Source: Candidatus Omnitrophota bacterium (GTDB lineage Bacteria; Omnitrophota; Gorgyraeia; Gorgyraeales; Gorgyraeaceae). Taken from it: 51,437 nt of DNA. This document shows positions 19,455-24,594 of the stretch, piece by piece. Every line of letters begins with the position of its first letter. Positions within the stretch are counted from its first letter, which is position 1. Under the pieces are notes generated by a model. The model was given only the letters and a program-made list of their open reading frames with translations. It made no database searches and was not told where the DNA came from. The position numbers and the translations under genes were made by a program. Where the stretch lies: NCBI GenBank assembly GCA_018814825.1, contig JAHIYJ010000021.1, forward strand, positions 1 through 51,437, in the 5' to 3' direction.

Positions 19455-19477
19455 ATAAAGACATAACCTAATTATAT

Positions 19478-19514
19478 CAAACCCGCATTGCAATTTAATT
19501 GCAATGCGGGTTTG
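19478..19514. repeat. Palindrome upstream of pfk (copy 1)
   Basis: CAAACCCGCATTGCAATT T AATTGCAATGCGGGTTTG. Confidence 0.95.
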
Positions 19515-19550
19515 GATGGAGTGTAATTTAATTTTTTCAAGGAGGAAATA

Positions 19551-20579: not shown

Positions 20580-20596
20580 TTAAATATAGTTTTTAT

Positions 20597-20633
20597 CAAA
20601 CCCGCATTGCAATTAAATTGCAATGCGGGTTTG
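20597..20633. repeat. Palindrome downstream of pfk (copy 2)
   Basis: CAAACCCGCATTGCAATT A AATTGCAATGCGGGTTTG; identical to copy 1 except the central base. Confidence 0.95.
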
Positions 20634-20646
20634 GAGTGTAATTCTT

Positions 20647-24342: not shown

Positions 24343-24416
24343 GCGGGTGTAGTTCAATGGTAGAACTCGAGCTTCCCAAGTTCGCAGCGTGGGTTCGATT
24401 CCCATCACCCGCTCCA
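24343..24416 (+). tRNA. tRNA-Gly(CCC), CCA encoded
   Basis: GCGGGTG/CACCCGC acceptor, GTTC/GAAC D-stem, CGAGC-TTCCCAA-GTTCG anticodon arm, GTGGGTTCGATTCCCAT T-arm. Confidence 0.96.
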
Positions 24417-24594
24417 AAATACTGTTGGGAAGAGGACCCAAAAAAGGGGTTTTAGGGGAAAAGAGTGTTTTCCCCTATCGGCGCACTACACTTCTTTGCG
24501 GAAGGAAGAAAAACATTAAAAAGAAACCATCAAGGGTTTCTTTTTAAGGAGTGAGCGGAGCGAACGACGGGTTCGATTCCCATCACCCGCTCCA
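24391..24594. mobile_element. tRNA-Gly 3'-end-bounded mini-insert (att-like direct repeats)
   Basis: 26-bp direct repeat GGGTTCGATTCCCATCACCCGCTCCA at 24391-24416 and 24569-24594; two perfect hairpins between. Confidence 0.65.
24516..24547. terminator. Bidirectional terminator-like hairpin inside the mini-insert
   Basis: TTAAAAAGAAACC ATCAAG GGTTTCTTTTTAA. Confidence 0.6.

What the first reader, a model, noticed from the sequence alone, without database searches (positions are those of the whole stretch)
24391..24594. 178-bp tRNA-Gly-bounded mini-insert with a perfect 26-bp att-like repeat
Seen: the last 26 nt of tRNA-Gly(CCC), GGGTTCGATTCCCATCACCCGCTCCA, recur exactly at 24569-24594. The intervening 152 nt has no ORF but holds two perfect hairpins (24453-24477, 24516-24547). 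Known: integrases using tRNA 3' ends duplicate the 3' end at the far junction. Inference: a collapsed integrative element, excision scar, or very small tRNA-targeting non-autonomous element. The ATPase operon begins about 50 nt downstream.
Basis: partly seen in the sequence, partly recalled or inferred. Interest (0 to 1): 0.6.

Follow-up and report, generated by a model that had tools for sequence, protein, structure and literature searches.

The report
Tiny mobile element targeting tRNA ends
The 178-bp oddity after the tRNA-Gly gene is one copy of an apparently undescribed family of about 150-nt gene-less mobile elements in Omnitrophota bacteria that insert into the T-arm of almost any tRNA, duplicate the tRNA's 3' end, and carry beside their core a short sequence complementary to that particular insertion site.

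Summary
In detail: the last 26 nt of tRNA-Gly(CCC) recur at 24569-24594, with two hairpins between. The interior is a dispersed, covarying two-hairpin element (family A). This genome has four copies, after tRNA-Gly, -Pro, -Arg and -Thr, each ending in a copy of that tRNA's own 3' end. A covariance model finds the family in 83 of 384 genomes of the class; 69 of 94 analysed copies follow a tRNA or tmRNA (16 isotypes), others 5S rRNA or, once, leuC. Just before the core, each copy tends to carry an antisense arm matching its own insertion junction (61 insertions; 10.2 versus 6.8 permuted, none of 10,000 permutations as high), even where the junction lies outside the T-loop. At this locus two relatives are empty, one holds a truncated copy, and others hold an unrelated element (family B) with the same architecture. 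No reverse transcriptase, dedicated integrase, Cas1 or Y1 transposase is required or associated. Best reading: a non-autonomous, structure-borne element inserting by a nick at the target with variable-length target duplication; the antisense arm is either made at insertion or guides it. Enzyme unknown. The element is well supported; the mechanism is inferred.

The parts
24343..24416 (+). tRNA-Gly(CCC), the target gene, intact
   Evidence: ARAGORN
24391..24416 (+). first copy of the duplicated target (T-arm to CCA)
   Evidence: exact repeat
24417..24422 (+). non-conserved filler (AAATAC)
   Evidence: variable in length and sequence among copies
24423..24440 (+). target-complementary arm TGTTGGGAAGAGGACCCA: pairs with T-arm TGGGTTCGATTCCCATCA (mostly Watson-Crick, one G-U, one tandem G-A)
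   Evidence: L020
24441..24452 (+). conserved left core AAAAAGGGGTTT
   Evidence: alignment A1
24453..24477 (+). hairpin P1 (covarying)
24491..24508 (+). small hairpin P2 around conserved TTGCGGAAG
24516..24547 (+). hairpin P3 (covarying, loop ATCA)
24548..24568 (+). right arm of the element, ending GCGAACGAC at the junction
   Evidence: conserved right junction
24569..24594 (+). second copy of the duplicated target, followed by the downstream flank

Best explanation
Window 24417-24594 is one insertion of a gene-less mobile element family (family A) found, as far as searched, only in Omnitrophota. SHOWN: a conserved two-hairpin core inserts at tRNA T-loops (RGGTTCRA-like sites) and occasionally at other structural RNA genes; the target from the junction to the tRNA 3' end, usually exactly to CCA and sometimes through the terminator, is duplicated on the far side; directly before the core lies a copy-specific arm antisense to the target, whose 3' end falls within about 2 nt of the junction in most copies. 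INFERRED (about 35%): the target is nicked at the T-loop, the free 3' end is extended to give the variable-length duplication, synthesis switches strand and copies back to the nick, leaving the antisense arm, and the single-stranded hairpin core is joined at that end. Alternatively (about 20%) the arm is a guide that base-pairs with the target beforehand. The enzyme acts in trans and is unidentified. The confidence given is for the element and its architecture, not for the inferred steps.
For: Core repeated in own genome at tRNA-Gly, -Pro, -Arg and -Thr, each with that tRNA's own 26-33-nt 3' end. CM R1: 83/384 class genomes in many families, 1-13 copies each. 69 of 94 copies follow a tRNA/tmRNA within 250 nt on the same strand, 16 isotypes. 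Antisense arm: own mean 10.19 versus permuted 6.84 (sd 0.20, max 7.70 of 10,000), n=61, arm 3' end mostly at -2..0 of the junction; still true where the junction is in the variable loop (L029, L045, L050, L049), anticodon arm (L081), 5S rRNA (L058) or leuC (L023). Empty sites at this tRNA-Gly locus in G006 and G001, truncated copy in G005. Covariation: 22 of 23 pairs with double changes, 97.4% of cells paired, 0/500 shuffles as high. Unrelated family B has the same architecture at Gly, Cys, Leu, Thr, Asp and Val tRNAs. All exact-pattern hits in GTDB genomes are titled Omnitrophota or an unnamed bin.
Against: No mobilising enzyme found. Some copies lack a recognisable arm (L013, L018, L067). 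About a third of the arms carry a recurrent tandem G-A mismatch opposite the T-loop GA, which a fresh strand-switch copy would not have. Low G-U content of the hairpins (1.7% versus 4.7% in local tRNA stems) hints at DNA-level constraint but does not prove it. No fresh insertion polymorphism inside one species was observed.
Confidence: 0.8

Rival explanations
1. Collapsed tyrosine-integrase island: the element's attP supplied the tRNA 3' end, cargo and integrase were lost.
For: T-loop-to-CCA identity resembles the T-loop class of tRNA attachment sites; integrase islands regenerate the tRNA 3' end (Islander, PMC4383910).
Against: One core beside 16 isotypes, tmRNA, 5S rRNA and leuC, each with its own matching copy and its own antisense arm; integrases in G000, G102 and G120 are Xer-like or fragments; duplications vary from about 17 to 90 nt and can include terminators.
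Confidence: 0.05
2. SINE-like retroelement: structured RNA inserted by target-primed reverse transcription, with end-to-end template jumping creating the arm.
For: Variable-length target duplications, fixed right end, variable left filler and covarying hairpins.
Against: RVT_1 in 5/20 carriers and 5/20 non-carriers, none in G000 or in single-contig G120 with 6 full copies; very low G-U in the hairpins.
Confidence: 0.15
3. Guided insertion: the antisense arm is a guide (RNA or ssDNA) that selects the target, and it drifts to match its host tRNA by selection.
For: Own-junction complementarity far above permutation; arm position fixed against core and junction; recurrent tandem G-A with flanking complementarity suggests a maintained helix.
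Against: Arms match unusual junctions such as leuC and an anticodon arm over 10-12 nt, which is hard to reach by later mutation; no RNA-guided protein identified.
Confidence: 0.2
4. Single-strand Y1 (HUH) transposition of a REP- or PATE-like hairpin element.
For: Y1_Tnp in 20/20 sampled carriers; hairpins with a pairing arm recall the guide/cleavage-site pairing of IS200/IS605 (own knowledge).
Against: Across the class 68/83 carriers versus 229/301 non-carriers (p=0.30); strong carriers G113, G191, G232, G280 lack Y1; this family makes no target duplication (own knowledge).
Confidence: 0.08
5. Remnant of a tandem tRNA-Gly gene.
For: Only the second T-arm copy.
Against: The same core follows unrelated tRNAs with their own 3' ends, and syntenic relatives have a single tRNA and no element.
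Confidence: 0.01

Closest known systems
tRNA-targeting tyrosine-integrase islands (T-loop sublocation; Islander, PMC4383910)
   Same: Identity block from T-loop to tRNA 3' end, tRNA left intact
   Different: No integrase or cargo, about 150 nt, one core at all isotypes and at non-tRNA targets, antisense arm
Casposons (Cas1 transposase; PMC6977970)
   Same: tRNA 3' end as target, target duplication
   Different: Casposon duplications are 14-15 bp at the last few tRNA bases, with TIRs and Cas1; here the duplication is longer and variable and Cas1 is in 3/20 sampled carriers
MITEs, PATEs and REP/RAYT hairpin elements
   Same: Short, gene-less, hairpin-based, dispersed, presumed trans-mobilised
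   Different: No clear long TIRs, variable long duplication, copy-specific antisense of the target, structural-RNA targeting
SINEs / target-primed retroelements
   Same: Gene-less structured unit, variable-length duplication, fixed 3' end
   Different: No RT associated; bacterial; antisense arm
RNA-guided transposition (IS110 bridge RNA, IscB/TnpB omega RNA, CAST)
   Same: An element-borne stretch complementary to its target
   Different: No associated nuclease or recombinase found; complementarity differs per copy and ends at the junction; no CAST or IS110 anatomy seen

Membership tests
tyrosine-integrase tRNA island | encoded or genome-borne dedicated integrase | tested here: not met
   PF00589: G000, G102, G120 carry only Xer-like proteins or fragments; no integrase family among the most frequent families of neighbouring ORFs
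tyrosine-integrase tRNA island | one element type uses one attachment site | tested here: not met
   16 isotypes, tmRNA, 5S rRNA, leuC
casposon | Cas1 present | tested here: not met
   PF01867 in 3/20 carriers, absent from G000 and G120
casposon | fixed 14-15 bp target duplication (PMC6977970) | tested here: not met
   about 17 to 90 nt
retroelement / SINE | reverse transcriptase available | tested here: not met
   PF00078 in 5/20 carriers, absent in G000 and G120
retroelement / SINE | variable-length target duplication | tested here: met
REP/RAYT or IS200/IS605 derivative | Y1 transposase in carriers | tested here: inconclusive
   82% of carriers versus 76% of non-carriers, p=0.30; some strong carriers lack it
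REP/RAYT or IS200/IS605 derivative | no target duplication | tested here: not met
   duplication of the target at each clear junction
IS110 / bridge RNA element | DEDD transposase and bridge RNA | not tested
known Rfam RNA | match to a covariance model | tested here: not met
   no Rfam family matched the core, even at permissive thresholds, in the loci scanned

The most novel reading that the evidence does not exclude
A self-retargeting guided insertion system: a roughly 150-nt structured unit whose 5' arm base-pairs with the target and whose 3' end abuts the matching target copy, so each insertion writes a new guide; two unrelated cores (A and B) would use the same trans-acting machinery.
Probability: 0.2. 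Interest if true: 0.95.

Novelty: categorically new. Interest (0 to 1): 0.82.

Why it matters
It shows a class of bacterial mobile elements that carry no gene, choose structural RNA genes by a short conserved motif, leave the tRNA intact by duplicating its 3' end, and record their target as an adjacent antisense copy. It explains many odd tRNA 3'-end duplications without invoking lost islands and gives many natural junctions for working out a new insertion chemistry. The enzyme could be a new structure- or guide-directed integration tool.

Tried and rejected
Integrase, RT, Cas1, Y1 and GIY-YIG partners were each tested by presence in carriers versus non-carriers: none is required or associated. 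Small GIY-YIG ORFs are the commonest neighbours (8/124) but also sit beside tRNAs in non-carriers. Phage, plasmid and viral collections: no match. Rfam: no match to the core. Literature: nothing found. A same-genus empty-site comparison at tRNA-Val of G190/G266/G244 was not clean because G190 has another insert there.

Full report
Observation. The 26-nt repeat, the two hairpins and the coordinates are as stated. The tRNA-Gly(CCC) gene is 24343-24416. The second copy, 24569-24594, is followed 52 nt later by a gene for a 100-aa protein without a Pfam match and then by an AAA-type ATPase.

It is a repeat family. A search of the window's own genome with the locus returned the interior at three further places. 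Reading them showed that each lies directly after a different tRNA (Pro-TGG, Arg-TCG, Thr-TGT) and ends with an exact copy of that tRNA's 3' end: 27, 33 and 33 nt. A covariance model built from 14 copies finds exactly four copies here and the family in 83 of 384 genomes of the class, scattered over many families, up to 13 per genome. An exact core pattern in the GTDB genome collection hits only records titled Omnitrophota (including Ca. Kappaea) or one unnamed bin; viral, phage and plasmid collections give nothing.

Structure. P1 and P3 covary strongly: in 125 distinct rows 97.4% of cells are paired, 22 of 23 pairs have double changes, and no shuffle or slide comes near (this alignment was fitted to the structure, but an independent MAFFT alignment gives the same). 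G-U pairs are rare, 1.7% against 4.7% in stems of local tRNAs (p about 9e-9), which suggests that the hairpins matter as DNA or are re-made as palindromes. No Rfam family matches the core.

Targets. Of 94 analysed copies, 69 follow a tRNA or tmRNA within 250 nt on the same strand (only the same strand was looked at), covering 16 isotypes. With roughly 40-50 tRNAs in a 1.5-Mb genome this would be below 1% by chance (my estimate). Other copies follow the 3' end of 5S rRNA (L058, L085, L103), abut the 5' end of a tRNA (L059, L104, L069) or sit between an aminotransferase and leuC (L023). The duplication starts at the T-loop (typically 24-27 nt before CCA) and most often ends exactly at CCA; in young-looking copies it runs on through the trailer or terminator (L044, L047, L043, L102).

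The antisense arm. Immediately left of the core nearly every copy carries a stretch complementary to its own target. Two permutation tests support this: left flank against own T-arm 8.99 versus 6.08, and a junction-centred test on 61 non-redundant insertions, 10.19 versus 6.84, sd 0.20, none of 10,000 permutations above 7.70. The arm's 3' end falls at -2 to 0 of the junction in most copies. Decisive are the junctions that are not at the T-loop: variable loop of Arg and Ala tRNAs (L029, L045, L050), anticodon arm of a Pro tRNA (L081), 5S rRNA (L058) and leuC (L023); there too the arm matches the real junction. In the window the arm is 24423-24440. A tandem G-A opposite the T-loop GA recurs in about a third of the copies, including this one.

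Empty and alternative states of this very locus. In G006 and G001 the tRNA-Gly(CCC) CCA end is followed after about 8-15 nt by the same downstream gene: empty sites. G005 has a truncated copy with a 16-nt arm. G008, G010, G011, G012, G016 and G018 carry an unrelated element (family B) that again shows filler, antisense arm, core and a 20-21-nt copy of the tRNA end; in G010 that copy abuts the ATPase start region. These six are one genus, so they need not be independent insertions. Family B also sits at Cys, Leu, Thr, Asp and Val tRNAs. So the site has been hit more than once, and the right-hand repeat joins the downstream flank; the left filler, arm and core are the insert.

Mechanism. Variable-length duplication argues against classical DDE transposition (fixed-length duplications; own knowledge). 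Carriers such as G000 and single-contig G120 contain no detectable reverse transcriptase, no Cas1, and essentially only Xer-like tyrosine recombinases; Y1 transposases and small GIY-YIG proteins are not associated. I therefore favour, with about 35% confidence, a nick at the T-loop, extension of the 3' end (duplication), strand switch back to the nick (antisense arm ending at the junction) and capture of the hairpin core. A guide role for the arm (about 20%) and target-primed reverse transcription (about 15%) remain open.

Limits. Genomes are mostly fragmented MAGs; the enzyme is unknown; no expression data; family and class labels are anonymous handles; IS110, TnpB and IscB were not tested; bioRxiv and subscription papers could not be searched.

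Noticed in passing
L179 and L180 (tRNA-Gly site of G016, G011); L117, L119, L134, L089:13108-13198, L147: Unrelated second element family (B, core ..GCCGAGCGAAGCGAGGAAAAG..) with the same layout: antisense arm, hairpins and copy of the tRNA 3' end.
   Followed up: partly
L138 (G007, tRNA-Thr): A small GIY-YIG endonuclease ORF lies between a tRNA and a 21-nt copy of that tRNA's 3' end; small GIY-YIG ORFs are tRNA-adjacent in 8 of 20 loci versus 1 of 20 control loci.
   Followed up: partly
L082, L083, L087, L040, L078 (G102, G120): A subgroup of family A has a conserved left hairpin TTGATAGCATAGG..CCTATGCTATCAA and non-tRNA targets.
   Followed up: no
L028, L030, L031, L108 (family f17): Some copies carry an extra conserved insert (AATAATGAGATAGGATTTATGG..) inside the core.
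   Followed up: no
L182, L186, L189; L174, L175: Two more small palindromic repeat families follow tRNA-Gly(CCC) in relatives, without a T-arm copy.
   Followed up: no
L016 (G041:C1:1108241): A copy beside a short promoter-led non-coding stretch ending ..GGGGTCGCCA that is not a recognised tRNA; its last 9 nt are duplicated.
   Followed up: no
window 19475-19515 and 20594-20634: Near-identical terminator-like hairpins (ATCAAACCCGCATTGCAATT..GGGTTTGG) flank the phosphofructokinase gene on both sides.
   Followed up: no
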